Source of the DNA: a virus
IMG/VR virus record: IMGVR_UViG_3300027762_000027
Span: 1-30,300 of that record
Strand: one strand, 5' to 3'
DNA length: 30,300 bases
The translations under genes were made by a program, and so were the position numbers. This document shows, one piece after another, positions 1-30,200 of the stretch; position 1 is the stretch's first letter; each line of letters opens with the position of its first letter. The notes beneath the pieces were generated by a model. It made no database searches and was not told the origin of the DNA. It saw nothing but the letters and a program-made list of their open reading frames with translations.

Positions 1-72
1 AATTGCAATAGGCTGATTAAGGCGGTGGGAGTTTATATGTTTGACAAGGGGAGATTGCATGGCAAAGAATAA
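1..72 (+). CDS. 3' end of an upstream gene (partial), possibly small terminase
   Basis: Frame 1 is open from the window edge to a TAA at 70-72, while the other two forward frames close within the first 15 bases. It would supply the last 23 residues of a protein ending in RLHGKE. It overlaps the ATG of the large terminase gene by 14 bases, as in translationally coupled phage genes. A small terminase subunit commonly sits in this place, but too little sequence is visible to identify it. The function is inferred from position only. Confidence 0.5.
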   Translation, partial: NCNRLIKAVGVYMFDKGRLHGKE

Positions 73-2710
73 TAGAAAGGCTCTTGCTAAAGTCACACAA
101 AATAAGAAATCTCACGACATTCCTGTTGAATATACTCCAAACGATAAGCAGACTATTTTTCATAATGTTGGTACGGATATTTGTATGTACGGCGGGGCCA
201 AGGGCGGGGGAAAAGCTCAACCTTTGGATTGTGAAGTATTAACCCCTAATGGATTTAAAAAGATGGGAGACATACAAATAGGGGATGTAGTCGTAAACCC
301 TGATGGAGGTACTTCCACTGTTATTCAAGTGCATCCACAAGGGATTCAACAGGTTTACGAGATAGGTTTTGTAGATGGGGCATTTACTAAGTGTACCCTA
401 GACCACTTATGGAAAGTAAAAAAAACAGACAAGAAAAAATCACGTGTTATTGAGACACGAGACATCATAAAACACTTTGATAATAAGTATGTAAATAACC
501 TACTCATACCTCTAACTAAACCTTGTGAATTTATAACTGCAGAGGAGGAGTTACCAATCCATCCATATGTGTTAGGGTTGTTATTAGGTGACGGTTGTTT
601 GACTTACTCTAATAGAAGAATATCGCTCACAACGGATGATGATTTTATTGTAAATGAGCTTAAAGAGTTAGGGTATACTTTTGCTATTAGTGTAAAACAA
701 AAGACTAGAGCAAGGAGCTTAACATTTAATAAAGTATCTCATTTATATTTAAAAGAACAATTAAAAAAACTAGGGTTATTATCTCACTCTGCCAACTCAA
801 AATTTATTCCTAATATATATTTAGAATCAAGTATAGAGGATAGATTTGAGTTATTAAGAGGACTTATGGATAGTGACGGATATGTAGATAATAGGGGACA
901 TTGTGAATTTACTACTATATCAATGGTTCTTGCAGTAGACACACAACAATTGATTTGGAGTTTAGGTGGTAAGGCAACAATAAAACAAAAGAAATGTTCT
1001 TATAAAAAAGATGGTGTAAAAGTTGAATGTAATGATGCTTTTAGACTTTATATACAAACACCAAAAAATTCAGAAATATTTAAGTTGCCTAGAAAAAAAG
1101 AACGATGTACTGATAAATTTAATGGTGGAATTTCTAAATTACAACGTAGAATAACAAGTATAGAATATTGGGGTGATGCTGAATGTAAGTGTATTACTCT
1201 AGATAGTGAGAATCAGTTATATATTACTGATGATTATATAGTAACTCATAATTCATGCGCCTTAGTTATGGATGCCCTTATGTATGCTGTAGATTATCCA
1301 GGAGCATTGATATATTTGTTTAGGGAGAGTTACGATGATTTAGAGGCCAATATTATAAGAGAGTGGAAAACCAAAGTCCCTAAGGAATTATACGAATACT
1401 CTGAAACGAAGCATATTGCTAAATGTATAAATGGCAGTGAAGTAATATTTAGATATATCTCAAATGACCAAGATGCTGATAGGTATAGGGGTCGTTCGAT
1501 GGACTATATTGGCGTTGACGAATTAACCAAGCATAGTAAAGAAAGTATACAAATATTGCTTTCTTGTTTGAGAAGTCCAAAGGGATTTCCTCCTAGGTTT
1601 AGAGGTACGACGAATCCAGGCTCAAAAGGCCATAATTGGGTTAAAATGGATTTCGTTGAGGCCACTGATTATGGCAAATATATTATAAAAGATCCAGTTA
1701 CAGAACAATCAATTTCTTTTATTCCTGCCACAGTGTATGATAACTATGTCATAATGGAAAATGACCCTAACTATGTTAAGAGGTTGGAGAATCTACCAGA
1801 GAGAGAACGTAAAGCCTTTCTGTTAGGTGATTGGGATTTATTCGAAGGACAGTATTTTAATTTTGTTCGTTCTGTTCATGTGGTAGATAATATGGTTATT
1901 CCGAAAGACTGGGATAGATACGTTTCCCTTGACTATGGATTAGATATGTTGGCGGCATACTGGACAGCATTTGATCCGCAGGGGAAAGCTCATGTATACA
2001 GAGAAGCCCACGTTCCTAATTTAATTATTTCTGAGGCAAGAGAATTAATAAATTCTATGACATTACCGAACGAAAATGTAGTTTCATATATTGCTCCACC
2101 TGATTTATGGAACAGGAGACAGGACACAGGAAAGTCCGCTGCTGAAATATTTTCAGAAAGTGCAGATGGAATATTCTTAATTAAAGCTAGTAATGATAGG
2201 GTGCAGGGTTGGTATAACATGAGAGAGTGGCTAAGAATCCACAAAGTTAGAGATGAGCAAACTGGTGCAGATATATTTGTGTCTAACATGGTTATATCAA
2301 GTGAGTGTCCTTGTTTGATAAGAGGTATTTCAGAATCACAGGCAGACGAGAAAAATCCTAGTGATGTTGCAAAAGAGCCTCATATCTTGACACATAGTTG
2401 CTTGACTGGTGATACTATTATTGAAACTGTAACTGGTGGTATTAGAATAGATGAATTAATAGGGTCTAATCATTTAGTATATTGTATAGATGATAAAACA
2501 AGGAAACAAGAAATAGGTTTGGCTTATGATGTTAGAATGACAAGCCCTAAAGAAAAGGTGTATAAGGTTGATTTAGAAGATGGCAGATTTGTGAAAGCAA
2601 CAGCAGACCACAAACTACTTACTGAAAGAGGTTGGGTAGAATTAAAAGATTTAAAATTAGATGACGAAATAGTAACTATTGATGGACAGACACCTTGCGA
2701 TATGTTATAA
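59..2710 (+). CDS. terL: Terminase large subunit, N-terminal part, with an internal intein and the N-half of a split intein
   Basis: This is the DNA packaging motor: an ATPase that pumps DNA through the portal and a nuclease that cuts the concatemer. The ATG at 59 has an AAGGGGAG ribosome site at 46-53; the in-frame TTG at 41 has none and is less likely. In spliced numbering the protein shows Walker A GGAKGGGK-S (residues 45-53, split by the intein at 215-1252), Walker B IGVDE (D141/E142, 1508-1522), the coupling motif GTTNPG (170-175) and a first nuclease aspartate in SLDYGLD (D279). The terminase part stops at THS (2398). The rest of the reading frame, 2399-2707, is an intein N-half, then TAA. 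The missing end, including a conserved DSIRY motif, is encoded at 3479-3598. The N-extein is 434 residues; with the 40-residue C-extein the product is 474, a normal length for the family. Confidence 0.93.
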   Translation: MAKNNRKALAKVTQNKKSHDIPVEYTPNDKQTIFHNVGTDICMYGGAKGGGKAQPLDCEVLTPNGFKKMGDIQIGDVVVNPDGGTSTVIQVHPQGIQQVYEIGFVDGAFTKCTLDHLWKVKKTDKKKSRVIETRDIIKHFDNKYVNNLLIPLTKPCEFITAEEELPIHPYVLGLLLGDGCLTYSNRRISLTTDDDFIVNELKELGYTFAISVKQKTRARSLTFNKVSHLYLKEQLKKLGLLSHSANSKFIPNIYLESSIEDRFELLRGLMDSDGYVDNRGHCEFTTISMVLAVDTQQLIWSLGGKATIKQKKCSYKKDGVKVECNDAFRLYIQTPKNSEIFKLPRKKERCTDKFNGGISKLQRRITSIEYWGDAECKCITLDSENQLYITDDYIVTHNSCALVMDALMYAVDYPGALIYLFRESYDDLEANIIREWKTKVPKELYEYSETKHIAKCINGSEVIFRYISNDQDADRYRGRSMDYIGVDELTKHSKESIQILLSCLRSPKGFPPRFRGTTNPGSKGHNWVKMDFVEATDYGKYIIKDPVTEQSISFIPATVYDNYVIMENDPNYVKRLENLPERERKAFLLGDWDLFEGQYFNFVRSVHVVDNMVIPKDWDRYVSLDYGLDMLAAYWTAFDPQGKAHVYREAHVPNLIISEARELINSMTLPNENVVSYIAPPDLWNRRQDTGKSAAEIFSESADGIFLIKASNDRVQGWYNMREWLRIHKVRDEQTGADIFVSNMVISSECPCLIRGISESQADEKNPSDVAKEPHILTHSCLTGDTIIETVTGGIRIDELIGSNHLVYCIDDKTRKQEIGLAYDVRMTSPKEKVYKVDLEDGRFVKATADHKLLTERGWVELKDLKLDDEIVTIDGQTPCDML
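215..1252 (+). mobile_element. Uninterrupted LAGLIDADG intein in the terminase Walker A loop (346 residues)
   Basis: This intein lies between Lys (212) and Ser (1253) of GGAKGGGK|S. It begins with Ala-Gln-Pro-Leu-Asp, not Cys or Ser, and ends VTHN followed by Ser. Block B reads CTLDHLW (Thr, His, Trp) and block F reads KCITLD. An Ala first residue with a block B Trp, a block F Cys and a Thr just before the terminal His-Asn is the pattern reported for class 3 inteins, in which the block F Cys starts splicing. Two LAGLIDADG endonuclease motifs are present: LGLLLGDG (572-595) and LRGLMDSDG (854-880). Splicing in cis restores the ATP-binding loop, so terminase cannot be active before splicing. 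The boundaries are clear; the class 3 assignment is from motif reading only. Confidence 0.92.
2399..2707 (+). other. N-half of a split intein in terminase (103 residues)
   Basis: The half starts with Cys1 (CLTGDTIIE, block A) directly after terminase residues LTHS. It contains block B ATADHKLLT, with the usual Thr-x-x-His, followed by a WVELKDLKLDDEIV strand. It ends at a TAA, with no endonuclease domain and no C-terminal splicing blocks. Its length and its VYKVDLEDG/ATADHKLLT region resemble the N-half of cyanobacterial DnaE split inteins, which is about 102 residues. It should pair with the 35-residue C-half encoded at 3374-3478 and splice Ser434 to Cys435 in trans. Confidence 0.9.
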
Positions 2711-2729
2711 TATAAAGTGAGGTGAGAGT

Positions 2730-3362
2730 ATGTATGTAGAGTTAGATGGTATTAAATTTTACAAAGATAGTAAAGGTTATTATAGTGGTGCTTTTAAATA
2801 TAAAAGGCTTCATGTTTATATTTGGGAAAGGGAACATGGTAAAGTACCTAAAGGTTATCATGTGCATCATAAAGACGAGAATAAAGAAAATAACGAATTA
2901 AGCAATCTGGAGTTGATAGAAAAAAGTAGACATCTTAGTTTACATTCTAGTACGAAAGAAAATGTTGAACGCATCAAAAAAGTTTTAGAAGAAAAAGCAA
3001 GACCAGCCGCTATAAAATGGCATAAGTCTAAAGCGGGTAGAGAGTGGCACTTAAAACATTACGAAGATATGAAAGATAAGTTTCATGCGACTAAAGAAAT
3101 AATCTGTTTAGTCTGTGAGAAAAAAGTAGAAGTGCCTCTTGGTGGAGGGGGAAAAGAAGGACATAAATTTTGTTCTAATAATTGCAAATCCACACACAGA
3201 AGGCGTTCTGGTGTAGATAATATAAAAGCAAATTGCATATTATGTGGTAAGGAATTTGAAAAAAACAAATATTCCAAAGTGGTATATTGTTCTCGTTCCT
3301 GTTCTGCTAAGGTTAACAGAAAAATTCAATTAGAAAAAATGGACTCAAATAGAACAAGTTAG
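2730..3362 (+). CDS. Free-standing HNH homing endonuclease with two zinc fingers, inside the split intein locus
   Basis: This 210-residue protein has its own ATG and a GTGAGGTGA ribosome site (2717-2725), 19 bases after the stop of the intein N-half. Residues 27-72 form a phage HNH domain: RLHVYIWEREHG, then YHVHHKDENKENN with H46/H47, SNLELI with N59, then SRHLSLH. The C-terminal half has two Cys4 zinc-finger-like units, C126/C129/C148/C152 and C169/C172/C187/C191, which probably bind DNA. Its position exactly between the two intein halves suggests that it cuts an uninterrupted terminase allele and so spreads the whole unit. The stop TAG overlaps a GTG of the next frame (TAGTG), so translation may be coupled. 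Endonuclease identity is well supported; target and activity are inferred. Confidence 0.88.
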   Translation: MYVELDGIKFYKDSKGYYSGAFKYKRLHVYIWEREHGKVPKGYHVHHKDENKENNELSNLELIEKSRHLSLHSSTKENVERIKKVLEEKARPAAIKWHKSKAGREWHLKHYEDMKDKFHATKEIICLVCEKKVEVPLGGGGKEGHKFCSNNCKSTHRRRSGVDNIKANCILCGKEFEKNKYSKVVYCSRSCSAKVNRKIQLEKMDSNRTS

Positions 3363-3373
3363 TGGGTGACGAA

Positions 3374-3478
3374 ATGAAAATCAAATCAATAACTTTTATC
3401 GGTGAAGAACCTGTCTATAATATGGAAGTAGACAGGTTTCATAATTTTGCGGTAAATGGAGGAGTGATAGTCCACAAC
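3374..3478 (+). other. C-half of the split intein (35 residues)
   Basis: The C-half runs from the Met at 3374 to the terminal Asn at 3476-3478, followed by Cys as the +1 residue. The block F His-Asn-Phe and the penultimate His needed for Asn cyclisation are present. The 103 + 35 split lies where endonuclease domains normally sit in uninterrupted inteins, and where DnaE inteins are naturally split. Confidence 0.88.
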
Positions 3479-3601
3479 TGTGACTCCATTAGGTATCTCC
3501 TTAGTAATCGACCAGCTCCTACAAATCCTGGTGCTACATATTACAGTGATGATGAGGATGATGATGATATTGATTTAAAAGGTGGCTATTTCGACAGTTA
3601 A
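3374..3601 (+). CDS. terL: Split intein C-half fused to the terminase C-terminus
   Basis: This 75-residue protein consists of a 35-residue intein C-half followed by 40 residues of terminase. The intein part carries block F (VYNMEVDRFHNF) and block G (VIVHN|C) and resembles DnaE-type C-halves. The terminase part begins at Cys (3479) with CDSIRYLLSN. The conserved DxxRY segment normally carries the third acidic residue of the terminase nuclease (D436 after splicing), so the N-terminal product alone should lack nuclease activity. The tail is acidic (SDDEDDDDID). I chose the ATG at 3374 because GGGTGA (3364-3369) precedes it. The GTG at 3362, which overlaps the HNH stop codon, is an alternative through coupling and would add MGDE. 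Confidence 0.88.
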   Translation: MKIKSITFIGEEPVYNMEVDRFHNFAVNGGVIVHNCDSIRYLLSNRPAPTNPGATYYSDDEDDDDIDLKGGYFDS

Positions 3602-3607
3602 TTATTT

Positions 3608-3695
3608 GGCATAAAACATAGCACGTGCCACGTGTTGAGGACATTGTTACCCGATCGACAGGTTCTTTTTTTATGCCTTTTATAAATGGTCGGGT
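3608..3695 (+). promoter_or_regulatory. Structured leader upstream of the methyltransferase gene, with crossing inverted repeats
   Basis: Two long-range pairings are visible. GGCATAAAA (3608-3616) is an exact complement of TTTTATGCC (3669-3677). ACCCGATC (3649-3656) pairs with GGTCGGGT (3688-3695) with one G-U, followed by the T-rich TATATTATTTTT. The pairings cross, so they are either mutually exclusive or form a pseudoknot. A further small hairpin, TAGCACG-TGCCA-CGTGTTG, occupies 3619-3637. The second stem with its T-rich tail could act as a weak terminator and the first as its competitor, which would make this an attenuator. It matches no RNA class I recognise. The function is inferred. 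Confidence 0.4.
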
Positions 3696-3717
3696 TATAT
3701 TATTTTTAGGAGGATTT

Positions 3718-4263
3718 ATGAAGTACAGTATTATTTACGCAGATCCACCATGGAAGTATGAGGATAACCGTTGTCAAGGTGCGTGTGAAAGGCATTACGC
3801 TACATTAAGTAATAAAAGAATATGCGAGTTACCCGTCAACAAATTAGCCGCTGAAAACAGCGTACTTTTTTTATGGGCTACTTATCCTATGTTAAAAGAG
3901 GCTTTTGAAGTAATTGACTCGTGGGGTTTTACATATAAAACAATCGCATTTCAATGGGTAAAGTTAAATAAAAGCGGGAATGGGTATTTTTTAGGATTAG
4001 GTCGTTGGAGTAGGTCTAATACTGAACCATGCTTATTAGCAGTAAAGGGCAAACCCAAGCGTGTGTCTGCTAGTGTTAGACAATTAATTACATCTCCTTT
4101 AAGACGTCATTCACAGAAACCTGATGAGACACGAGACAGAATAGTTGAACTTGTAGGAGATTTACCAAGATTAGAGTTGTTCGCCAGAGAAAAAATAGAT
4201 GGCTGGGATTCGTGGGGGAATGAAGTAAAAAACAATATAAAACTTTCTTTGGAGGATTTATGA
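3718..4263 (+). CDS. MT-A70 family DNA adenine methyltransferase
   Basis: This 181-residue protein is predicted to methylate adenine N6 using S-adenosylmethionine. The catalytic DPPW motif is at residues 9-12 (YADPPW), the pattern of the MT-A70 family found in phages. Downstream it has the FLWATYPML segment and a conserved SRSNTEPCLLAVKG stretch. The ATG at 3718 has an AGGAGG ribosome site (3708-3713), which decides the start over upstream in-frame codons. The stop overlaps the next gene by ATGA, implying coupled translation. A methyltransferase between terminase and portal is an accessory insertion and may protect phage DNA from restriction or mark it for packaging. No cognate restriction gene is present, so an orphan role is likely. 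Confidence 0.85.
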   Translation: MKYSIIYADPPWKYEDNRCQGACERHYATLSNKRICELPVNKLAAENSVLFLWATYPMLKEAFEVIDSWGFTYKTIAFQWVKLNKSGNGYFLGLGRWSRSNTEPCLLAVKGKPKRVSASVRQLITSPLRRHSQKPDETRDRIVELVGDLPRLELFAREKIDGWDSWGNEVKNNIKLSLEDL

Positions 4264-4574
4264 TAAGTGAATTAACTATATTAATGTTAGTGCATGGATT
4301 AAGTATTCTATGTGGTGTATTTGTGGGATATAAGATAGCAATGAGGTGCGTTGATTTAGATTTAAAGTATGATAATGATGTTGATATACCTAGCTTTGAG
4401 CCAGAGGATATTGCAGAGCCACTACTAAGCAAGATATTCCCTAGCGAGACTGTGAAAAAGGCTATTAAAAATGCTATAAAGAAAGATTCTAAATTTGATG
4501 ATGATACTTATATAAAGCCAATGACACAAGAGGATATAGAGGATAATGGTAGAAAACACGCTTTTTATGATTAA
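4260..4574 (+). CDS. Small single-pass membrane protein, unknown function
   Basis: This 104-residue protein overlaps the methyltransferase stop through ATGA and has GGAGG upstream. Residues about 3-27 form a hydrophobic helix (LTILMLVHGLSILCGVFVGY), probably a membrane anchor or uncleaved signal. The remainder is hydrophilic, acidic and then lysine-rich, with no motif I recognise. Its place between the terminase unit and portal suggests an accessory gene expressed with the methyltransferase. The function is unknown. Confidence 0.7.
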   Translation: MISELTILMLVHGLSILCGVFVGYKIAMRCVDLDLKYDNDVDIPSFEPEDIAEPLLSKIFPSETVKKAIKNAIKKDSKFDDDTYIKPMTQEDIEDNGRKHAFYD

Positions 4575-4586
4575 GGAGGTGTAATT

Positions 4587-6698
4587 TTGTTAAAGGCATT
4601 ACTTAGCACGAAACGAGAAAGTGAAACAAACGAAAAAGCTAGTGTAAATCCTAACACTCCAGTGGAGCAAGAACTAGGGATTAAGATTGCTAGTGATTTG
4701 TATTCAGCGGACGCTGCTAAAACAAGCACTATTGATGAGTTAGGTTTTACTATTGAAGATAACTGGAAGGACGAAGAAAAGATATACAAAGGTGGAGGTC
4801 TCCAGTGGTGTACTGATTTTGCATACCGTAGTAAACGTATGAGAAAGATAAGACCTAACAGCGAGGATAATTTTGTATTTAATGCAGTCCAAATACAAAT
4901 GTCAAATATTACATCAACTACACCAGAAATAAAGATTACAGGCACAAAAAACGAGCATGAGGTACAAGCTCATAAAATACAATGTGCAAGTCGGTACAAT
5001 GATGAAAAGAACAACTTTGATTTATTGTGGAGACGATCTGTTTTAGATTTCTTGAAGTATGGTCCAGCTATAATGAAGGTTTCGTGGGATTCAGAGAAGT
5101 ATGGTGGTAGGGGTCCCGATAGGTGGATTGGTGATGTTGCGGTAGAAAAAGTTAGGAAAGAAGATTTTCTACCAGACCCAGCAATACTTGATTTAGAATT
5201 AGATATGGATTCATGTTCTTTCATAATTCAAAGATACAGAAAAAAACTTTCTTATATTCATGACCGTTGGGAAGAATACGGGAAACACGTAGGAACTGAT
5301 ACTAACACCGATATTGATGTTAATGAGGGATTCAATCCTCAAATGACGTATGTGTATGAATACTGGCACAGAGGATTCCCTGAGTATATGCCTAAAGGTA
5401 GGAAAAAAGAATTAGAACAAAGGGCAATTGACCTAGAGGAAAAAGGTTATATTTACAAGGCAAAAGATATACTCGATATGTCAAAAGGAGATATAGACGG
5501 TGTTCACGTAGCATATTATGCTGATGGTGTTTTACTTGAATATGTTCCTTATGTATACGACCATGGTAAATATCCTTTTGCTTTTTCTACAAGATATGAT
5601 GATGAAATAAGTCAATGGGGTTTTGGTGAGATAAGGAATATAAAAATACCCCAGGTCTTGCATAACAAAGCTGACGAAGTGGAAATGGAGGCTATGTCAA
5701 GGCAAGGGCTTGGTGGTTTCTGGTACAGGAGAGGTTCTATTTCTCCTAAACAACTAGAAAAAATCAAAGAGGACAACGGAAAAGGTGGAATGTTTTTTGA
5801 AGTAAACGATACAAACGGTATATTGCCACGTGAGGGTGTTCAAGTTCCACCTAGTATAACTAATTACAAAGAACATAAACAACGTATGGTAGAGACTGTT
5901 TCACAAGTTACAGCTATACAACAAGGAATAAGTCCATCCGCCTCAATGCCATTTAAAAGTTTAGCTGAATTAGGGGCACGTACTGACGTAAGAATGAGAT
6001 CGGCTGCTGAAAAGCTAAAATACCTACTTATTAAAGTTAATATGATAAGGATAGATTTGTTCGAGCAATTTTATACAGAAGAAAGATACTACAGGCTAAA
6101 AGGTCCAGACGGAAAGATAGTAGAGGATGGAACAATCTCTAATCAAATGATGTATGACGTATGGATAAGAGAAACAAAAACAGATGAACTAGGAAACACA
6201 ATCAATTTAGAGGAGCACTTTATACCTGACTTTGATATAGAGGTTGACGTAATATCTAAAAAACCTACTGACAGAAACTTCTACGCTAATATAGCTTTCA
6301 CTATGTTTGATAGAGGAGCTATTACAAAAGAAGATCTATGGAAAACAGTAGACGAAGGAAGATTGCCAGATTTGGATATAGTAATGCAGCACTTGATGGC
6401 ACAAGACAATATCCTTGCAATGACTTCCCAATTAGGTGAACTGCCACCAGAAGTACAACAAGAAATAATGCAAAGCAAGATGGCAGAATTACAGATGATA
6501 GTACAAGAGGCAAAAAGAATGATAGAAGAAAACCAAATGATGCAAAAGGGTAAAGGTGGTGGCGGTGGTGTGAACAACCCACAAAACCAAACTAACAAGC
6601 CCCAACAGCAACCTAAACCAAAAGAATTTGCTGACAATCTTGAATATAGTGGAGGACTTGTTGGAGGACAAAATTTTGATAATTCTTTAACAAGATAG
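4587..6698 (+). CDS. Portal protein (P22-like, 703 residues)
   Basis: The portal forms the dodecameric ring at the special capsid vertex through which terminase pumps DNA and to which the tail attaches. The start is a TTG at 4587, preceded by a near-perfect AAGGAGGTG (4573-4581). The length and the pattern of an early segment with RIR-like basic residues (RSKRMRKIRPNSEDNFVFN), a FLKYGPAIMKVSWD core and a long alpha-helical C-terminal part resemble the large portals of P22-type podoviruses. Residues after about 630 are helical and Gln-rich, followed by a GKGGGGGVNNPQNQ low-complexity stretch, perhaps the barrel end and a disordered tail. Terminase upstream and scaffold downstream support the call. 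Confidence 0.85.
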   Translation: MLKALLSTKRESETNEKASVNPNTPVEQELGIKIASDLYSADAAKTSTIDELGFTIEDNWKDEEKIYKGGGLQWCTDFAYRSKRMRKIRPNSEDNFVFNAVQIQMSNITSTTPEIKITGTKNEHEVQAHKIQCASRYNDEKNNFDLLWRRSVLDFLKYGPAIMKVSWDSEKYGGRGPDRWIGDVAVEKVRKEDFLPDPAILDLELDMDSCSFIIQRYRKKLSYIHDRWEEYGKHVGTDTNTDIDVNEGFNPQMTYVYEYWHRGFPEYMPKGRKKELEQRAIDLEEKGYIYKAKDILDMSKGDIDGVHVAYYADGVLLEYVPYVYDHGKYPFAFSTRYDDEISQWGFGEIRNIKIPQVLHNKADEVEMEAMSRQGLGGFWYRRGSISPKQLEKIKEDNGKGGMFFEVNDTNGILPREGVQVPPSITNYKEHKQRMVETVSQVTAIQQGISPSASMPFKSLAELGARTDVRMRSAAEKLKYLLIKVNMIRIDLFEQFYTEERYYRLKGPDGKIVEDGTISNQMMYDVWIRETKTDELGNTINLEEHFIPDFDIEVDVISKKPTDRNFYANIAFTMFDRGAITKEDLWKTVDEGRLPDLDIVMQHLMAQDNILAMTSQLGELPPEVQQEIMQSKMAELQMIVQEAKRMIEENQMMQKGKGGGGGVNNPQNQTNKPQQQPKPKEFADNLEYSGGLVGGQNFDNSLTR

Positions 6699-9322: not shown

Positions 9323-9342
9323 TCTCCACTAGAAAAGATTGC

Positions 9343-9401
9343 AATCCCCCCAGCTATATTATATAATAAAAGAAATATTTTATAGTTGGGGGGATTTAAT
9401 T
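9343..9401 (+). promoter_or_regulatory. Long hairpin: terminator-like, and masks the endonuclease ribosome site
   Basis: AATCCCCCCAGCTATA (9343-9358) pairs with TATAGTTGGGGGGATT (9381-9396) over 16 positions with a single G-U. The loop is AT-rich, and AATTTTT follows. It can end transcripts from the capsid gene. The only purine-rich ribosome site for the next gene, GGGGGGA (9388-9394), lies wholly within the 3' arm and would be buried in full-length transcripts. Such masking is known for homing endonuclease genes in phage T4. Confidence 0.75.
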
Positions 9402-9404
9402 TTT

Positions 9405-10214
9405 ATGCCTAATGGAGTTTATCTAGTTTGCTGTATGAAAACAAATAATATTTATGTTGGTGAGTCAAGGAATATCGGACATAGAATTTCTAGACATAAG
9501 TGGATGCTAAAAAATGGGACTCATTTTTCTAGGATATTACAGGATGACTGGAATAATAACGGTTCGCACAATTTTACTTTTGGTGTAATTGAACATATGG
9601 CTGATTCCAATAAAGAGGAACGGGTAAAGAGAGAATCTTATTGGATTGAACATTATAATGGAGACCCAGATTATAATGTTGTTAATGTATGTTTCGGTGA
9701 CACTCGTATGTCTGAGGAGGGTAAAGCCTCTTTTAAAAAGAAAATGAGCGAACGTATGTCTGGAGAAAACCATCCTATGTGGGGCAAAGAAGGATTTTGG
9801 AAAGACAAAAAAAGACCTGCTGAGTTTAGTTATAAAATTAGCAATGCTCTAAAAGGTCATACAGTCACAGAGGAAAGTCGTAAAAAAATGTCAGAAGCTA
9901 AACTAGGTAAAGAACCACCTAATAAATTTCAATCTACTCCAGAAATACTTGAAGAAATAAAATTTGGTATGAGTGCAAAAGAGTTCGCTGATAAGTATGG
10001 ATATTCAAAAAATACTTGGAAACGAATAAGAAAAGAACTTAAACAAACAGGCGAAATATCAGATACTAAACTTTCAAAGTATAAGGGAGTAACCTTCGAT
10101 AAGGGAAGAAATAAGTGGAGAGCGAGTTTTAGAGAAAATGGTAAAACTCGTACTATTGGTAGGTTCGATACTGAGGATGAGGCTTACAACATGATTTTGC
10201 AAAAGCAAAACTAA
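9405..10214 (+). CDS. GIY-YIG homing endonuclease with NUMOD3, HTH and AP2 DNA-binding parts
   Basis: This 269-residue free-standing endonuclease is predicted to cut intron-less or gene-less relatives and spread its own gene. Residues 4-85 are the GIY-YIG nuclease: GVY (4-6), YVG (17-19), catalytic Arg27 and Glu77 in RESYWIEHYN. A NUMOD3-type motif (SGENHPMWGK, about 119-128) and a related KALKGHTVTEES-like copy follow, then a helix-turn-helix region (AKEFADKYGYSKNTWKRI). The C-terminus is an AP2-like domain (YKGVTFDKGRNKWRASF ... TIGRFDTEDEA). The ATG at 9405 is chosen because the domain begins there; upstream in-frame codons fall in the hairpin. It interrupts the head gene order and is best read as an invader. 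Confidence 0.88.
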   Translation: MPNGVYLVCCMKTNNIYVGESRNIGHRISRHKWMLKNGTHFSRILQDDWNNNGSHNFTFGVIEHMADSNKEERVKRESYWIEHYNGDPDYNVVNVCFGDTRMSEEGKASFKKKMSERMSGENHPMWGKEGFWKDKKRPAEFSYKISNALKGHTVTEESRKKMSEAKLGKEPPNKFQSTPEILEEIKFGMSAKEFADKYGYSKNTWKRIRKELKQTGEISDTKLSKYKGVTFDKGRNKWRASFRENGKTRTIGRFDTEDEAYNMILQKQN

Positions 10215-22940: not shown

Positions 22941-25900
22941 ATGTTTAATAGACTAATAAATGCTGCTAAAAAATTATTTACTAAGAAAAAAAAAGAAACG
23001 AAACCAAAACCAAAACCAAAGCCTAAGCCTAAACCTACTCCTAAGCCTACACCTAAACAAAATGTAAAAGCTCCAGTTAAAAAAAATATAGCACAGATAA
23101 AAGAAAGACAATTAGAGCCTAGAGTACCATCAAAAAAAGCACCAACTAAAGCACAGCCTAAACAACAAGTAAAACAACAGCCTAAGCCACAACCTAAACA
23201 ACAAGTAAAACAACAAGTAAAACAACGACCTCCTGCTCCTATAAAAAGAAGTGTTATTCAAGAGAAAGAGCGTAGGTTAGATCCTAAAATTTCTAACAAA
23301 AAAATTGCAGCACTTCAAAAACAAAGTGTCAAAGCCCCAGCACCAGTTAAACAGCCTACTAAAAAACCCATATCACCAGAGGCTAGGCAACGAGCAGCCT
23401 TTATTGTAGGTGATACATCAAAAGTTAAACCATCAACCAACACTAATTCTTCTCAAAAATTCACTCCTAAACAAGTAGAGAAAAAAACTACCGACTATAA
23501 TAAATTTAAAACTGATACAGCAAAAAAATATGGTGTTACTCAAACACCTACTGCTACTAAGAGAAAAGATTTTATCGGACCACAGCCTAAGAAATTTGAT
23601 TTCAATAAATATGTAGATGATATGAATAAGGCTGTCGTAAATTTAAAAAAAGAGCAGGATAAAATAACAGCTAAACCAGTAAAACCAGTTAGGAGTAATG
23701 AAATATATTCTGGAGCTGGGACACATCCGTCTATTGCAAAAATTAGACAATACACTAGCGACCAACAACAAGCTAAACCAGTCAATGAGAAAAGCTATTT
23801 AACTAGGGATTTGTCTAACAAAGCAACCAATAGAATGTTGGGCGACTTTAAACAAAGCACTGATAATATAATGGCTGCTAATCCAAACCCTATTGATAAT
23901 AGAATTAGAGAATATATAAATAGTAGGAGAGACTCTTTTGTTGGTCCAAAACAACAGGAGCAAGACAAGTCTTTAACTAAGCAACCTACTACAATAGCTA
24001 AAAATATGGATATAAAAAGATTTAATGATGCTAATATAAAGGGAATACAACAAGGGAAAACAGGCGTATTAAATATGTCTCGTTATTCCGATAAACCAAC
24101 AGAGAAGGAAAGAATATTAGATATAGGCAGACAAAATAGGAGTGAGCTAGATAGAGGAAATATCAATTTTAGTAATATGGCAGGATATAATAAGAATTTA
24201 TATAAAGACACACCACAAAAACCTATTACTAAAATGGATGATCTTAAAGCATCTGTATCTCCACAACGTAGAAAAGAAACTGCATCAAATATTCCATATG
24301 GTGCATTTGAGGCTATACCTTTCGCAGAACAATTAACCTCAAAAGCATTAGGAGTAAAACCAAACAAATTACGTGAGGCTCTAACTGGTGCTAGTGGTAG
24401 GCTTGATATGGAGTCTACCTTGACAGGGCAACCAAGGAGAGAATACAAACCAAGTGGAACAGATGAAGCAATGAAATATCTAGGTGCAATGTATAGTTAT
24501 GGTATGCAGACAAATTTTGGAGGACATATCATAAAAAAAATACCCGCTGTATCTAGGGAACTAAATAAAATTAATAGTCCAGTAGTAAAAGAATTTGTGG
24601 CTGATGTTTTGGCAGACCTACCAGTCTCTATTGGTGAGGGAATCAATGAGGCTCTAAGGACAAAAAGCGGTAGAGCTGGTATGGAAAATCTTATAGCTAA
24701 TGTGGCTATCAATGCTGCAATGGCTGGAATACCAACGATACCTACAGGTATTAGAAAAACAAACGATTTTATCAATAACAAAATTGGTAATATGCGTAAT
24801 AATCTTAATGCTAAGGTTGAGCAACCAAAGCCAGAGTTATTTGATAGTGTTGTAAAAGAACAGGAGATTAAGCCAGTACAAGAGCAGGAAATAGTGAGAC
24901 CTACGGAACCAAAAGAAATAGCTATGGAAACTAAGCATGATATAGAATTACAACCTAAGACACAAGAGATAGAACCGAATAATACTGTTGCTGAATACAA
25001 AGCACAGTCTGGAACTACATATAAGATAAAAAAACTAGCTAACGGAAAGTCTCAAATATTTAAAAAGGTAAATGATAATTATGAGCAACCTGGTAAAGTA
25101 TTTGAATCGGTAGACGAGGCAGTAACAAAGGTTGAATCAAGTGGATTTAAAAAGGTTGACGATGTTGCTAAACCTGTCAAGGATGATATTGAATCACCTA
25201 CCAGTTTAAAATTGCAAAATATTGATGAATTATCTTCTACAAAAGGTGCTTTTATATCTCCTGATGGGAAATATCATTATTTAAATAGTGATTTTGATAA
25301 ACACCAATATTATGCTAGTGATGAATTATTTAATCAAAATTATATTAGAAAAACTGTGAGAGATGGGACTTATAGTTTTGAACTAAATTCATTAGATGAA
25401 AAGAGTTTAAAAAATATAGAAAAAGATATTTTAACTATTTCAAATATTGGAGATAGGAAATTTTGGATTGAGGTAGGAAAAGAAAATAGGACTTACACAG
25501 TTAATGGCAATGACTTTGTAGATAATGGGTTTAATTTAGCAAAAACAATAAAACAATCTAGATTTAAAGAAAGTAAATATATGAGTAACTTTGATTCAAG
25601 TGCGTATATTGCTAAACCTATTGTGCAACCAACAGAAGTAAAACCAGAACCAACTGTTGCAAAACAGACAACCGTTGATAAACCTGTAGAGGTTAAGCAA
25701 GAACCAGTTAAACAAGTAGTAAAAGAAACACCACCTACACCTAAAAAACTACCTGACACAGAACAAGAACTCGAAACACTTGTCAAAGATTTAACTGAAC
25801 AGCAGAAAAAAGGTAAGGGTATAGACTTACAATTCTTTGCAGAGGCTAAGAAAAAACTATCTAAGCTAAGGTCTAACACACTAAGAAATGCTAACTGGGC

Positions 25901-28900
25901 ACAAGACGAGGAAATGCAAAAGGCTATAGATAGCTTTGCTATGACGTATGAAGAAAAACCTAACAAGAAATCTATAGAAAGAGCAGTAAATGAATTAGAG
26001 ACAGATTATGACGGTACTAAGGAAAGAATACAGAACAATGGTATATCTGGAGCAGAGGATTCAGTTGCTGCTGGTATTATCGCAAGAGATTTATTGACGA
26101 GTAAAAAATATGATGAGGCAAAGGAATTTATAAGAGCTGCTAGAAAAGAATATACAAGTCAAGGGCAATCAATACAGGCAATTAAAACATGGCAGATTGA
26201 TTCTCCAGAAACTGCAATAAGAAAAGCTGATGCCACAATATCAAAATCACAAAAAGAATTGTTAGACAAAGATCCTAAATTGAAAAAGAAAATAAATAAG
26301 GAAACGTCTGACGTTGACAAGGCAGTTAAAAAGGCTACTAAAAACGCTGCTGAGGATATTGCTGACGAGGTGGCAGAAAACTTTGAGGAAATAATAAGTT
26401 CAAAAGGTAAGTCTAAACCAAAACAAAAAACTGATTCACCAAATAAAAAAGAAAGAAAAGAAATGTTGGAAGAACCTACACCAGAGGAAATGTTATTTGA
26501 GAAAATTTCTAGTGATGTAACAAGACCTCCAGCAAGTGAAAAAGAAAAGGATATAGTAGAAGAACTTGTCAATGAGCTATACAAAAAATATAAAGAGACA
26601 ACGAATAGTCCAGTTAAGATTAAGGACCCAACAGAGAAAATAAAAGAACTAGGACAAGCTATGCAAAATAGGAGTCTGACCTCACAAGTGTGGGATGATG
26701 CAAAGGAACTTGTTAGGACTAAGTTTGCCAAAGAGGAGACAGCATTAGAATATTTAGAGCAATATTTAGATACAAGGAGTAAGCCTCAATTCGCAGACAA
26801 AACATTAGTACAAGCATTTAACGAGGGAACGGATGCACTTGGTATCAAGGTAAAAGAAACTATACTATCACACTATGAAACTGGAGCAGAAACAAGAGGC
26901 AAACTAAAAGACTTCATAATTGAGCAATCTGGGTTGACTGGTGATGATGCTAAGTCTATAGCAAACTACATAGACAACAGATTTAAGGAACTAAGAAAGG
27001 AATATAGTGCTAAGTATTTAGAGTCTGAAACTAAAGTAAGGTCTAAAGGAACAGCTAAAGACGTACTTAAAAAAATCGAGGAAATCTCTAACGCTGGTGG
27101 TTTTAATAATGAGATATTTAACAAAGCCATATTAGAGAAAATGCCAGTTAAATTAAGACGAGCTATAAAAGATACTGGTGTTGATATGTTAAAGACAGTA
27201 AAAAGCGGAATAGAGACAACAAACTTAGTTAAAGATGCTTTTATTATGTATATCAAGGACAATTTAAAGGTTAATAAAAAGGATGCTAGGCTGATAACTG
27301 AACTTGCAAAAGCTGAGTTTGACAAACTAGCACTAGAAAAAAGAGAGGGTATTCTAAAGAATATGTTTAGGACTTATCCTAAAACAGCTCCTAAGCGTAC
27401 TATTGATAGAGTCCTTGAATTAATTGAGCTAGATGCTTACAGTAAGCCAGAATTAGTTGATATTATGAGAGCACAAAATAAAGTCCCTGTGCTAGAAACT
27501 GAGGATGTAAAAGAAATAACAGAGATAATGAATAGTATTAAAAAGTATGATAAGGATAGTTGGGATTATAGAGCAGGGATAAGCAAAGTAGAGAATATTA
27601 TAACTGAAAAGACACACGTACCATTCGGCGAAAAAATTGCGTCTTTTACTCGTAATAATATGTTACTCGCTGTGCCTGGTAGAGTTAGAGACTTTGGCAG
27701 CAATGTTAGTGGTGCTCTTGTTACAAGTGCTAAAAATGTTGTAGCTGTTCCTGTTGACAAGGCTGTTTCTAAAATAACTAAACGTAGGGAATTTGCATTG
27801 ACAAATCCAATGTCTGGGTTTAAAGGATTTAAAAAAGGTCTTAAAGAGGTCAGTAAAGACATAAAGTACGGAGTAGATACAGGAAGAAATAATACTCCTT
27901 ATGGGTTTACAAAAGGTTATAAAATTGATAATAAAGTTGGTCGTACAATGGAAAAAGTAGTTAATAACGCAATGGCTATCACAGATAGACCGTTCCACGA
28001 AATGGGTTATCAAGACAGACTAGATATGCTAAAAAAAGTTAACGATATGAATAACACTAAATATACTGATGAACAAATGAAAGAAATGGCTTTGAAAGAG
28101 GCTAACACTAGGGTATTACAAGACGATAATTTACTAGGTGAGGGAATAGGAGATATTAAAGTTGCCATCAATAAAATTGGTGAGTATTTTAATATAGGAA
28201 ACAAAGATTATGGTGCTGGGAATCTAGTGTGGCCATTTATAAAAACAAGTGCTAATTTTATTGCTCGTGCATGGGAATATACTCCAGCTAGTATAACTAA
28301 GGTGGCAGAGCAATTATACTATGCTAAGAGATATGGTAAAGATAGATTTGACCAGGCTAAATTTGTGGATGCTATTGCTAAAGGAATAACTGGTACTGGT
28401 CTAATTTACATAGGTCATAGGCTACGTTCAATGGGGCTTATAACTGGCAGATCTGATACGGATAAAGACAAAGCTGCTGTTGATAGAGAAAGAGGAATAA
28501 TACCATATGCCTTTAAAATTGGTAAAAACTTTGTTTCTTTTGATTGGGCTCAACCTTTTGCAACATCCTTAGCAATAGGAGCTGATTTGTATGACGAAGG
28601 TAAAACTGGATCTGGTGTTACAGACACTATCATAGAAGCAATATATACAGGAGGAGAAACATTATTTAAACAACCTTTATTCCAGAGTATAGAAAGATTG
28701 TTTTCTACTAATTATAGTGGGGACAGTAGTTTCTTTGGCAACATTCTTGATTTTGGGCAGACAGCATCACAACAATTTGTTCCACTTGGCACGATGGTAA
28801 GACAAATAAATAGAATAGTTGATCCTACGGTAAGAACTACATATAATCCGTCACGTACTAAACAGCTTATGTTAAATCAAATAATATCAAGATTGCCTGG

Positions 28901-30200
28901 AGGAAGTTTTGCTCTTGAACCTAAGATTGGAACTGACGGAAAACCTATAAAACAATATCAAGGTAGAGGTATTGTTTCAAGATTTTTAGAGTCTTTCTTT
29001 AATCCAGGTGTTTATAGTAAATTATCAAACGACAATGTATCGAAGGAGGTTTCTACTTTATTTGAAAAGACAGGACAAAAAACTCACGTTCCTAGTATAC
29101 AAGAAAAGTCTTATCGTATAGAAAATAAACCATACAAGCTAACTGACAAGGAGTATACGAAGTATCAATCCCAATTGGGTACTCGTACTAGGGAATTATA
29201 CGACCTTGTTATGGCTACGGATGAGTACAAAGATTCTAGCGATAGTCAAAAAGTTAAGCTGCTGTCTGATGCAATAGAGGAGTCCAGACAGGATGTTAGG
29301 AGACAATTCATAGCTGACAGAGGTATTGCATTAAGTGGTAAAGAAAAGACAGATGATTACTTTGCTGAGAGTTCTGTTGCTCAAATAGTTAGGAACAAGT
29401 ACAAAGGATTTGATAAGTTTACTATCAAGGGTAAGGAGTATCGTTTGACTAATGACGAGGTGAAACAATACAGGGATATTTATAACGATGAAATTTCTAT
29501 TGCATACGAGACAGTTAAGAACGAATCAGATTTCTACAAGCTAAGTCCAGAGGACAAGTACAAATTCCTAAATCAAATGGGAACGGATGTTAAGTCTGCT
29601 GTAAGAAATATGTATGCGGAGGCAAAAGGTATTGATACAACATCAGAGAGGACAGAGGAACAAAAGAAATTGTCTGTTATGAGGAATGAATTAAAGAGTA
29701 AATACATGATCCAGACTGACAATATGTTTAATTATGCAGAACAAATACAATGGATACCAGCTAAAGATTCCTCTTATGAAAATCTTAAAAAGGCAGAAGA
29801 AAAAGGATTCGACCGAATAAAACTCAATCAGGTTATACGTGACTTCAAAAAGATTGATGTTTTAGAAGGTAAAGAAGAGGTTAGTAAAAAACAAAAAATT
29901 AGATATTTATATGATAGGACTGACCTTACGAAAGAGGAAAAGGATGTTGTGTATGATGCCTTTTTATTTAGACCTACTGACACACAAAAAACGAAGATAG
30001 AAAATGCAGAGAAGGTTGGAGTATCCACTGATATTTCAAGAGAATTTCTAAGGTTACTATCAGAGTTAGAACCAGAAGGAGTAAATAAAAAAGGTGAGCC
30101 TTACAAGGGAGTTAGAAATGTTCAAAAAGATAGAGTCTTAAATTCAATGGGTTTATCGGGAGAACAAAGAGCGGCACTTAGAAAATTCTACGCAAAATAA
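22941..30200 (+). CDS. Giant internal virion (ejection)-type polyvalent protein, 2419 residues
   Basis: ATG 22941 follows GAGGAG. The N-terminus (about residues 15-150) is a disordered Lys/Pro/Gln region with KPKPKPTPKP runs. A hydrophobic patch near 583-605 (LIANVAINAAMAGIPTIPTG) lies in an IPYGAFEAIPFAEQL-containing block. A small folded domain lies at about 755-885 and a Lys/Glu-rich coiled region at about 940-1300. A block at about 1560-1920 (FTRNNMLLAVPGRVRDFGSNVSG ... DRPFHEMGYQDRLDML ... LVWPFIKTSANFIARAWE) resembles large phage/plasmid polyvalent proteins. The C-terminus has a duplicated about 75-residue unit (29106-29325 and 29410-29635). Size and place fit a T7 gp16-like ejected protein. 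No lysozyme or polymerase active site is evident. Confidence 0.65.
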   Translation: MFNRLINAAKKLFTKKKKETKPKPKPKPKPKPTPKPTPKQNVKAPVKKNIAQIKERQLEPRVPSKKAPTKAQPKQQVKQQPKPQPKQQVKQQVKQRPPAPIKRSVIQEKERRLDPKISNKKIAALQKQSVKAPAPVKQPTKKPISPEARQRAAFIVGDTSKVKPSTNTNSSQKFTPKQVEKKTTDYNKFKTDTAKKYGVTQTPTATKRKDFIGPQPKKFDFNKYVDDMNKAVVNLKKEQDKITAKPVKPVRSNEIYSGAGTHPSIAKIRQYTSDQQQAKPVNEKSYLTRDLSNKATNRMLGDFKQSTDNIMAANPNPIDNRIREYINSRRDSFVGPKQQEQDKSLTKQPTTIAKNMDIKRFNDANIKGIQQGKTGVLNMSRYSDKPTEKERILDIGRQNRSELDRGNINFSNMAGYNKNLYKDTPQKPITKMDDLKASVSPQRRKETASNIPYGAFEAIPFAEQLTSKALGVKPNKLREALTGASGRLDMESTLTGQPRREYKPSGTDEAMKYLGAMYSYGMQTNFGGHIIKKIPAVSRELNKINSPVVKEFVADVLADLPVSIGEGINEALRTKSGRAGMENLIANVAINAAMAGIPTIPTGIRKTNDFINNKIGNMRNNLNAKVEQPKPELFDSVVKEQEIKPVQEQEIVRPTEPKEIAMETKHDIELQPKTQEIEPNNTVAEYKAQSGTTYKIKKLANGKSQIFKKVNDNYEQPGKVFESVDEAVTKVESSGFKKVDDVAKPVKDDIESPTSLKLQNIDELSSTKGAFISPDGKYHYLNSDFDKHQYYASDELFNQNYIRKTVRDGTYSFELNSLDEKSLKNIEKDILTISNIGDRKFWIEVGKENRTYTVNGNDFVDNGFNLAKTIKQSRFKESKYMSNFDSSAYIAKPIVQPTEVKPEPTVAKQTTVDKPVEVKQEPVKQVVKETPPTPKKLPDTEQELETLVKDLTEQQKKGKGIDLQFFAEAKKKLSKLRSNTLRNANWAQDEEMQKAIDSFAMTYEEKPNKKSIERAVNELETDYDGTKERIQNNGISGAEDSVAAGIIARDLLTSKKYDEAKEFIRAARKEYTSQGQSIQAIKTWQIDSPETAIRKADATISKSQKELLDKDPKLKKKINKETSDVDKAVKKATKNAAEDIADEVAENFEEIISSKGKSKPKQKTDSPNKKERKEMLEEPTPEEMLFEKISSDVTRPPASEKEKDIVEELVNELYKKYKETTNSPVKIKDPTEKIKELGQAMQNRSLTSQVWDDAKELVRTKFAKEETALEYLEQYLDTRSKPQFADKTLVQAFNEGTDALGIKVKETILSHYETGAETRGKLKDFIIEQSGLTGDDAKSIANYIDNRFKELRKEYSAKYLESETKVRSKGTAKDVLKKIEEISNAGGFNNEIFNKAILEKMPVKLRRAIKDTGVDMLKTVKSGIETTNLVKDAFIMYIKDNLKVNKKDARLITELAKAEFDKLALEKREGILKNMFRTYPKTAPKRTIDRVLELIELDAYSKPELVDIMRAQNKVPVLETEDVKEITEIMNSIKKYDKDSWDYRAGISKVENIITEKTHVPFGEKIASFTRNNMLLAVPGRVRDFGSNVSGALVTSAKNVVAVPVDKAVSKITKRREFALTNPMSGFKGFKKGLKEVSKDIKYGVDTGRNNTPYGFTKGYKIDNKVGRTMEKVVNNAMAITDRPFHEMGYQDRLDMLKKVNDMNNTKYTDEQMKEMALKEANTRVLQDDNLLGEGIGDIKVAINKIGEYFNIGNKDYGAGNLVWPFIKTSANFIARAWEYTPASITKVAEQLYYAKRYGKDRFDQAKFVDAIAKGITGTGLIYIGHRLRSMGLITGRSDTDKDKAAVDRERGIIPYAFKIGKNFVSFDWAQPFATSLAIGADLYDEGKTGSGVTDTIIEAIYTGGETLFKQPLFQSIERLFSTNYSGDSSFFGNILDFGQTASQQFVPLGTMVRQINRIVDPTVRTTYNPSRTKQLMLNQIISRLPGGSFALEPKIGTDGKPIKQYQGRGIVSRFLESFFNPGVYSKLSNDNVSKEVSTLFEKTGQKTHVPSIQEKSYRIENKPYKLTDKEYTKYQSQLGTRTRELYDLVMATDEYKDSSDSQKVKLLSDAIEESRQDVRRQFIADRGIALSGKEKTDDYFAESSVAQIVRNKYKGFDKFTIKGKEYRLTNDEVKQYRDIYNDEISIAYETVKNESDFYKLSPEDKYKFLNQMGTDVKSAVRNMYAEAKGIDTTSERTEEQKKLSVMRNELKSKYMIQTDNMFNYAEQIQWIPAKDSSYENLKKAEEKGFDRIKLNQVIRDFKKIDVLEGKEEVSKKQKIRYLYDRTDLTKEEKDVVYDAFLFRPTDTQKTKIENAEKVGVSTDISREFLRLLSELEPEGVNKKGEPYKGVRNVQKDRVLNSMGLSGEQRAALRKFYAK
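29106..29635 (+). repeat. Tandem duplicated C-terminal domain in the giant protein
   Basis: Two units match in order: KPYKLTDKEYTKYQ / KEYRLTNDEVKQYR, then YDLVMATDEYKDSSDSQKVKLL / YETVKNESDFYKLSPEDKYKFL, then RRQFIADRGI / VRNMYAEAKGI. They are too diverged for recent duplication and probably serve as repeated helical binding modules. Confidence 0.7.

What the first reader, a model, noticed from the sequence alone, without database searches (positions are those of the whole stretch)
215..3481. Two inteins, one at each catalytic centre of the same terminase
Intein 1 separates Lys and Ser of the Walker A loop (GGAKGGGK|S). Intein 2 joins Ser to Cys just before Asp of the DSIRY segment, which in terminases normally carries a nuclease metal-binding Asp. 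Both the ATPase and the nuclease should therefore be inactive until splicing. Conserved sites are favoured by inteins, but two in one phage motor, one cis and one trans, is notable and would make packaging depend on both splicing events. It could delay packaging or couple it to redox or other conditions.
Basis: partly seen in the sequence, partly recalled or inferred. Interest (0 to 1): 0.75.

Follow-up and report, generated by a model that had tools for sequence, protein, structure and literature searches.

The report
Phage DNA-packaging motor with two inteins
A phage's DNA-packaging enzyme is interrupted at both of its catalytic centres by self-removing protein inserts, one of them encoded in two separate pieces around a DNA-cutting gene; close relatives lack both inserts, so they look like selfish mobile elements in conserved motifs rather than a proven control switch.

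Summary
The terminase large subunit (TerL) at 59-3601 carries a cis, class 3 type intein with a LAGLIDADG endonuclease at the Walker A K52|S53 junction (215-1252), and a class 1 type naturally split intein at S434|C435 (IntN 2399-2707, IntC 3374-3478) with a separate HNH gene between the halves (2730-3362). Removing both gives a 474-residue TerL. D436 is invariant in 44 aligned relatives and aligns, by profile and by fold, with the third nuclease Asp of solved terminases. Three distinct intein-free relatives (79-97% identical) show both empty sites, so neither intein is essential and regulation is unsupported. A short foreign-looking tract 3' of site 2 suggests arrival by homing. Double-intein TerLs are published (cyanophage Mic1, a crAss-like phage); two further contigs found here (L165, L169) share the same two sites. 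The broader result concerns the nuclease-site intein family. Its HNH gene is never an in-frame domain: 27 of 49 loci carry it out of frame inside a contiguous intein, 22 between the halves of a split intein. I found no description of this in the papers searchable here. Splicing, homing and any timing role remain untested.

The parts
59..214 (+). TerL N-extein, residues 1-52, ending in Walker A GGAKGGGK
   Evidence: 44 of 44 relatives have G49 G50 G51 K52
215..1252 (+). Intein 1 (cis), 346 aa: Ala1, block B Trp (DHLW), block F Cys (CKCIT), block G Thr (VTHN); inserted K52|S53
   Evidence: relatives
563..1021 (+). LAGLIDADG (DOD) endonuclease region inside intein 1, both motifs present (LLLGDG, GLMDSDG); limits approximate
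   Evidence: (PF14528, PF05204)
1253..2398 (+). TerL middle extein, residues 53-434: rest of ATPase domain and most of nuclease domain (D279 and the D334/D336 region)
2399..2707 (+). Intein 2 N-terminal half (IntN, 103 aa, Cys1, TADH block B); stop codon 2708-2710
   Evidence: TIGR01445 4.9e-07; PF14890
2730..3362 (+). Separate HNH endonuclease gene with two Cys4 zinc-finger-like modules (210 aa), upstream Shine-Dalgarno-like gaggtgag
   Evidence: PF13392 2.4e-15; phrog_15471 5e-43
3374..3478 (+). Intein 2 C-terminal half (IntC, 35 aa, ends VIVHN); ATG 3374, or GTG 3362 overlapping the HNH stop
   Evidence: TIGR01443 1.8e-05
3479..3601 (+). TerL C-extein, residues 435-474 (CDSIRYLLSN...); C435 at 3479-3481, D436 at 3482-3484; stop 3599-3601

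Best explanation
Two unrelated mobile inteins have colonised the two catalytic motifs of one phage TerL. Intein 1, a class 3 type intein with its own LAGLIDADG endonuclease, is excised in cis and restores the P-loop. Intein 2, a class 1 type intein, is made as two polypeptides: TerL(1-434)-IntN and IntC-TerL(435-474). These associate and splice in trans, adding the C-terminal helix that holds the nuclease Asp. The HNH gene between the halves is the likely homing endonuclease for site 2. Shown: gene layout, intact catalytic motifs, empty-site alleles, invariance of D436, and a foreign-looking 3' flank at site 2. Inferred: that both inteins splice, that the precursors lack ATPase and nuclease activity, and that the endonucleases cut the empty alleles. 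The simplest reason for the positions is that conserved, essential motifs are good homing targets and punish imprecise loss.
For: Junctions and families. Class 3 triad shared with TerL inteins of PF672P1, TaPaz, CL131 and HM1. IntN 103 aa / IntC 35 aa with C1, TxxH, block F His, penultimate His, terminal Asn and +1 Cys. 32 stops between halves. Same layout in L005, L010 CL2, L049 and others. Empty alleles. D436. 3' flank tract at site 2: identity about 65% over 45 nt against L002 and L003, which are 87% alike there, while the 60 nt upstream is 90% and the next 78 nt is 94% to L003; the protein is unchanged there apart from I435C.
Against: No splicing or cleavage data. The IntC start is uncertain (ATG 3374 or GTG 3362). 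The 45-nt tract is short and could be local recoding rather than co-conversion. The empty-site phages carry Ile or Val at +1, so a homing event had to bring the Cys with it.
Confidence: 0.88

Rival explanations
1. The two inteins form a conditional switch: packaging waits for both splicing events, timed by TerL fragment dosage, redox or another signal.
For: Both sites are catalytic; one reaction is bimolecular, so it should be concentration dependent. Mic1's authors proposed similar control (PMC7156551). Mycobacterial DnaB inteins respond to stress (abstract of PMC6195587).
Against: L002 (97% identical TerL), L003 and L004 lack both inteins, so the lineage does not need them. In L165 and L169 the Walker A inteins are different sequences on near-identical exteins, which fits turnover of mobile elements. 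No redox sensor was shown.
Confidence: 0.08
2. Intein 2 is a decayed contiguous intein and the TerL gene is broken (pseudogene).
For: Stop codons lie between the halves.
Against: All intein 2 splicing residues are kept in both halves, the IntC ORF has its own starts, the HNH gene is intact, and 21 other loci in the 49-locus set show the split form with conserved halves. L005 is identical.
Confidence: 0.02
3. The two TerL pieces work as a gene in pieces without splicing, as reported for a phage ribonucleotide reductase split by an endonuclease gene.
For: Such a genes-in-pieces case is cited in PMC10448857.
Against: Both pieces end in conserved intein halves with full catalytic residues, which would be pointless without splicing.
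Confidence: 0.02

Closest known systems
Microcystis phage Mic1 TerL (MN013189; PMC7156551)
   Same: TerL with two inteins, one in the ATPase domain and one in the nuclease domain; the nuclease intein sits directly before the same Asp (DHL|CDALRY); regulation by splicing was proposed there.
   Different: Mic1's ATPase intein is at the TG|TPKG motif, not Walker A; both inteins lie in one contiguous ORF, with no HNH gene between halves.
IMG/VR contigs L169 (3300032296_004457) and L165 (3300047512_000187)
   Same: Walker A K|T class 3 type intein plus nuclease-motif intein in the same TerL.
   Different: The nuclease-site intein is contiguous, with the HNH gene nested out of frame rather than between separate halves.
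Fractured genes: split inteins with an intervening endonuclease gene; AceL NrdHF (PMC7891396) is a worked example
   Same: Host gene broken into two ORFs, each with an intein half, endonuclease gene between; breakpoint at the usual endonuclease site.
   Different: AceL NrdHF is class 3 with a GIY-YIG gene in a reductase; here the split intein is class 1 type with an HNH gene in TerL. The Dassa 2009 paper itself could not be read.
Split TerL inteins AceL-TerL, GOS-TerL, Cat-TerL (PMC11766414)
   Same: Naturally split inteins in terminase large subunits.
   Different: They are split near the N-end (IntN 25-37 aa); this one is 103/35. Their insertion site was not compared.
TerL1-a inteins of mycobacteriophages (PMC5050341)
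   Same: P-loop insertion between Lys and Thr/Ser; several phage inteins there were shown to splice and to encode working endonucleases.
   Different: That survey found TerL inteins only in the ATPase domain.
ShiLan domain, hidden HNH (PMC11855218)
   Same: HNH gene with zinc-finger modules read out of frame with its host gene, without stops in the host frame.
   Different: ShiLan has no splicing domain; the TerL elements here are true inteins.

Membership tests
Class 3 intein (intein 1) | No nucleophile at position 1 | tested here: met
   Ala1 (AQPLD)
Class 3 intein (intein 1) | W-C-T triad: block B Trp, block F Cys, block G Thr | tested here: met
   DHLW, CKCIT and VTHN aligned with four other TerL inteins; triad defined in PMC7891396
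Class 3 intein (intein 1) | Block F Cys is the branch-point nucleophile | not testable with these tools
   needs mutagenesis
TerL P-loop (site a) intein | Insertion between the Walker A Lys and Ser/Thr | tested here: met
   K52|S53; empty alleles GGGK-S/T
Class 1 split intein (intein 2) | Cys1, TxxH, penultimate His, terminal Asn, +1 nucleophile on two separate ORFs | tested here: met
Class 1 split intein (intein 2) | Trans-splicing activity | not testable with these tools
   needs co-expression
Fractured-gene arrangement | Endonuclease gene between the two host-gene fragments, not fused to the intein | tested here: met
   HNH ORF 2730-3362 in the +1 frame
Fractured-gene arrangement | Endonuclease cuts the intein-free allele | not testable with these tools
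   indirect only: empty alleles and a 3' flank tract
Terminase large subunit | ASCE ATPase plus RNase H-like nuclease fold | tested here: met
   L002 model pLDDT 88; best matches 5oea/5oe8 Z 23, SPP1 nuclease 2wc9 Z 17 rmsd 2.6, G20c 5m1f Z 15.9 rmsd 2.9
Terminase large subunit | Third metal-binding Asp equals D436 | tested here: met
   invariant in 44 rows; profile alignment to 5oe8, 4dkw and 2wbn (the 2wbn match weak); model 251-446 to SPP1 237-413. Coordinates of the active site were not inspected

The most novel reading that the evidence does not exclude
Inteins at the TerL nuclease motif form a widespread phage family whose HNH homing endonuclease is never an in-frame domain. It is encoded either out of frame inside a contiguous intein whose own frame is kept open (dual coding), or between the two halves of a split intein, as in this window. 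These are two alternative ways for an intein to keep a separately translated endonuclease gene.
Probability: 0.8. Interest if true: 0.7.

Novelty: new variant of a known kind. Interest (0 to 1): 0.52.

Why it matters
It gives a natural case where both catalytic sites of one viral motor depend on protein splicing, one reaction in cis and one in trans, with near-identical intein-free phages as controls. The claim that inteins regulate their hosts, rather than parasitise them, can thus be tested directly. The wider TerL family suggests a route to naturally split inteins: an endonuclease gene sits in the intein in its own frame, and the intein either keeps its frame open across it or goes to trans-splicing. 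It also yields about 20 apparently uncharacterised split inteins with a conventional breakpoint (about 95-103 / 35 aa) that may serve as ligation tools.

Tried and rejected
Group I/II intron or other RNA element between the halves: no Rfam match in 1-6000. Read-through or frameshift joining the halves: 32 stops. Assembly artefact: the intein 2 region is identical in L005, IMGVR_UViG_3300009009_000079; intein 1 has no second copy. First fold of TerL with six sequences was poor (pLDDT 53) and was replaced by a 44-sequence model (pLDDT 88). A six-sequence profile found no solved terminase; the 44-sequence profile did. Host: the only near hit in genome contigs, L192, is a 3.8-kb contig in a Burkholderiales MAG, identical to phage contig L003, and is not taken as host evidence. 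Intein 1 has no near relative in IMG/VR by the close-relative search. The spliced protein was not folded, as it is not read directly from the DNA; intein-free L002 was used instead. Dassa 2009 is not held, so what it says of terminases was not checked; preprints are not held.

Full report
What is there. ORF 59-2710 encodes a terminase large subunit (Terminase_6N; PHROG terminase families) interrupted by intein 1 and ending inside intein 2. Intein 1 spans 215-1252 (346 aa) between Walker A K52 and S53. Intein 2 begins at C1 (2399) after S434 and its ORF stops at 2708-2710. An HNH gene follows (2730-3362), then a short ORF (ATG 3374) with the 35-residue C-terminal intein half and TerL residues 435-474. 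The TerL frame holds 32 stops between the halves, so intein 2 can work only in trans. Removing both inteins gives 474 residues. A second record, L005, is identical over 6,023 nt, covering intein 2 but not intein 1.

Intein-free relatives L002 (97% identical TerL), L003 (93%) and L004 (about 79-80%) have GGGK-S/T-CALVM and HS-I/V-D-S/A-IRY uninterrupted. In 44 aligned TerLs, K52, D279, H433, D436 and Y440 are invariant. A profile of these aligns D436 with the Asp of NDHQLDADRY in D6E terminase (5oe8, E 8e-19), with the Asp of DDVLDATRY in the P22 nuclease (4dkw, E 3e-6) and, weakly, with that of NHTIDATRY in SPP1 (2wbn). The L002 model (pLDDT 88) matches D6E, Sf6, SPP1, P22 and G20c terminases. 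Its residues 251-446 pair with SPP1 237-413; if the C-terminal part is ungapped, 436 falls on 403, which I recall as an SPP1 metal ligand (from memory). Atomic geometry was not inspected.

Intein 1. It has Ala1, block B Trp, block F Cys and block G Thr, the class 3 signature (definition in PMC7891396), with both LAGLIDADG motifs. Parabacteroides, Acinetobacter, Aphanizomenon and Pseudoalteromonas phages carry TerL inteins with the same signature at the same motif. The K|S/T site is the TerL1-a site of mycobacteriophages (PMC5050341). In 'phages', 776 records hold a relative of intein 1. Intein 1 is thus a new member of a common kind.

Intein 2. The halves carry Cys1, TADH, block F His, penultimate His, terminal Asn and Cys+1, the class 1 catalytic positions. 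The split (103/35) lies at the usual endonuclease position. Site 2 of the empty alleles has Ile or Val, so Cys+1 came with the intein. The 45 nt just 3' of the junction are about 65% identical to L002 and L003, which are 87% alike there, although the encoded residues are the same apart from C435; identity is 90% over the 60 nt upstream and 94% to L003 over the following 78 nt. This is best read as a short donor tract carried in by homing, though local recoding is not excluded.

The wider family. Using the HNH protein as bait and profiles of the two intein halves, I classified loci by the frames of IntN, HNH and IntC. After removal of near-copies there are 49 loci with both halves: 27 with a contiguous intein frame and 22 split. 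The flanking residues are a TerL nuclease motif (variants of DHxxDAxRY) in nearly all of them. In no contiguous case is the HNH in frame with the intein: it lies in the +2 frame, except L036 (+1). Synonymous-codon shuffles of each HNH gene predict an open intein frame in only about 4 of the 49 loci (my sum of the per-locus values), against 27 seen; split loci carry about as many stops as the shuffles predict. Contiguous loci are defined by zero stops, so the meaningful figure is the 27 against about 4. In four informative near-relative pairs 52-60% of the substitutions fall on HNH third positions; the intein linker changes freely but gains no stop. On the HNH tree the two states need three changes against about 15 in shuffles, so state is inherited by clade, though many forks are weak. 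The direction of change was not established. The ShiLan report (PMC11855218) describes an out-of-frame HNH in an insertion without splicing domains; I found no paper describing it inside inteins, but preprints and Dassa 2009 could not be read.

Is the pair special? Mic1 TerL has inteins in both domains, its nuclease intein before the same Asp, and its authors proposed splicing control (PMC7156551). A crAss-like phage has two TerL inteins (PMC7886860). L165 and L169 have Walker A and nuclease-motif inteins; their exteins and second inteins are near-identical while their first inteins differ. So the combination has arisen more than once, and in that pair the first intein has turned over while the second stayed. 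What I did not find elsewhere is the cis plus trans combination of this window.

Mechanism. Most likely: translation of ORF1, excision of intein 1 in cis, association of IntN with IntC-TerL(435-474) and trans-splicing to mature TerL, with the HNH and LAGLIDADG proteins driving homing into empty alleles in mixed infections. Splicing is a reasonable requirement for packaging, but there is no sign that it is regulated: the nearest relatives do without both inteins. Positions in catalytic motifs are explained by the conservation of target sites and by selection against imprecise loss.

Noticed in passing
L012 (TJE1), L013 (Highwayman), L016, L018, L036, L129, L137, L143, L149, L152, L153, L155, L157, L163, L164, L168, L169, L171-L175, L181, L184-L186: Contiguous TerL inteins with an HNH gene nested in another reading frame; the intein frame stays open for about 145-235 codons across it.
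   Followed up: partly
L169 667-4317; L165 2-3625: TerL ORFs with two inteins (Walker A and nuclease motif); near-identical exteins and second inteins but different first inteins.
   Followed up: partly
L011 2200-2607 (Brochothrix phage BL3 gp2/gp3): Split TerL intein with a degraded HNH remnant (zinc-finger part only); the C-terminal half is annotated as an unknown gene.
   Followed up: partly
L010 2580-2750 (Lactobacillus phage CL2): The TerL C-terminal piece with IntC is unannotated and lies between the HNH and portal genes; TerL is annotated as if complete.
   Followed up: partly
L023, L024, L030 nuclease motif (HICDALRY): Intein-free TerLs with a native Cys at the +1 position: splice-ready sites, or scars of intein loss.
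   Followed up: no
window 9339-10214: GIY-YIG homing endonuclease gene just after the major capsid gene: a third endonuclease of homing type in this window.
   Followed up: no
window 3600-4260; L002 5443-7896: Between terL and portal the window has an MT-A70 methyltransferase where L002 has a cytosine methyltransferase-like gene and another ORF; terL is 95% identical to L002 but the portal region only 75%, so the boundary looks recombinogenic.
   Followed up: no
window 22941-30200: 2419-residue protein with no PHROG match.
   Followed up: no
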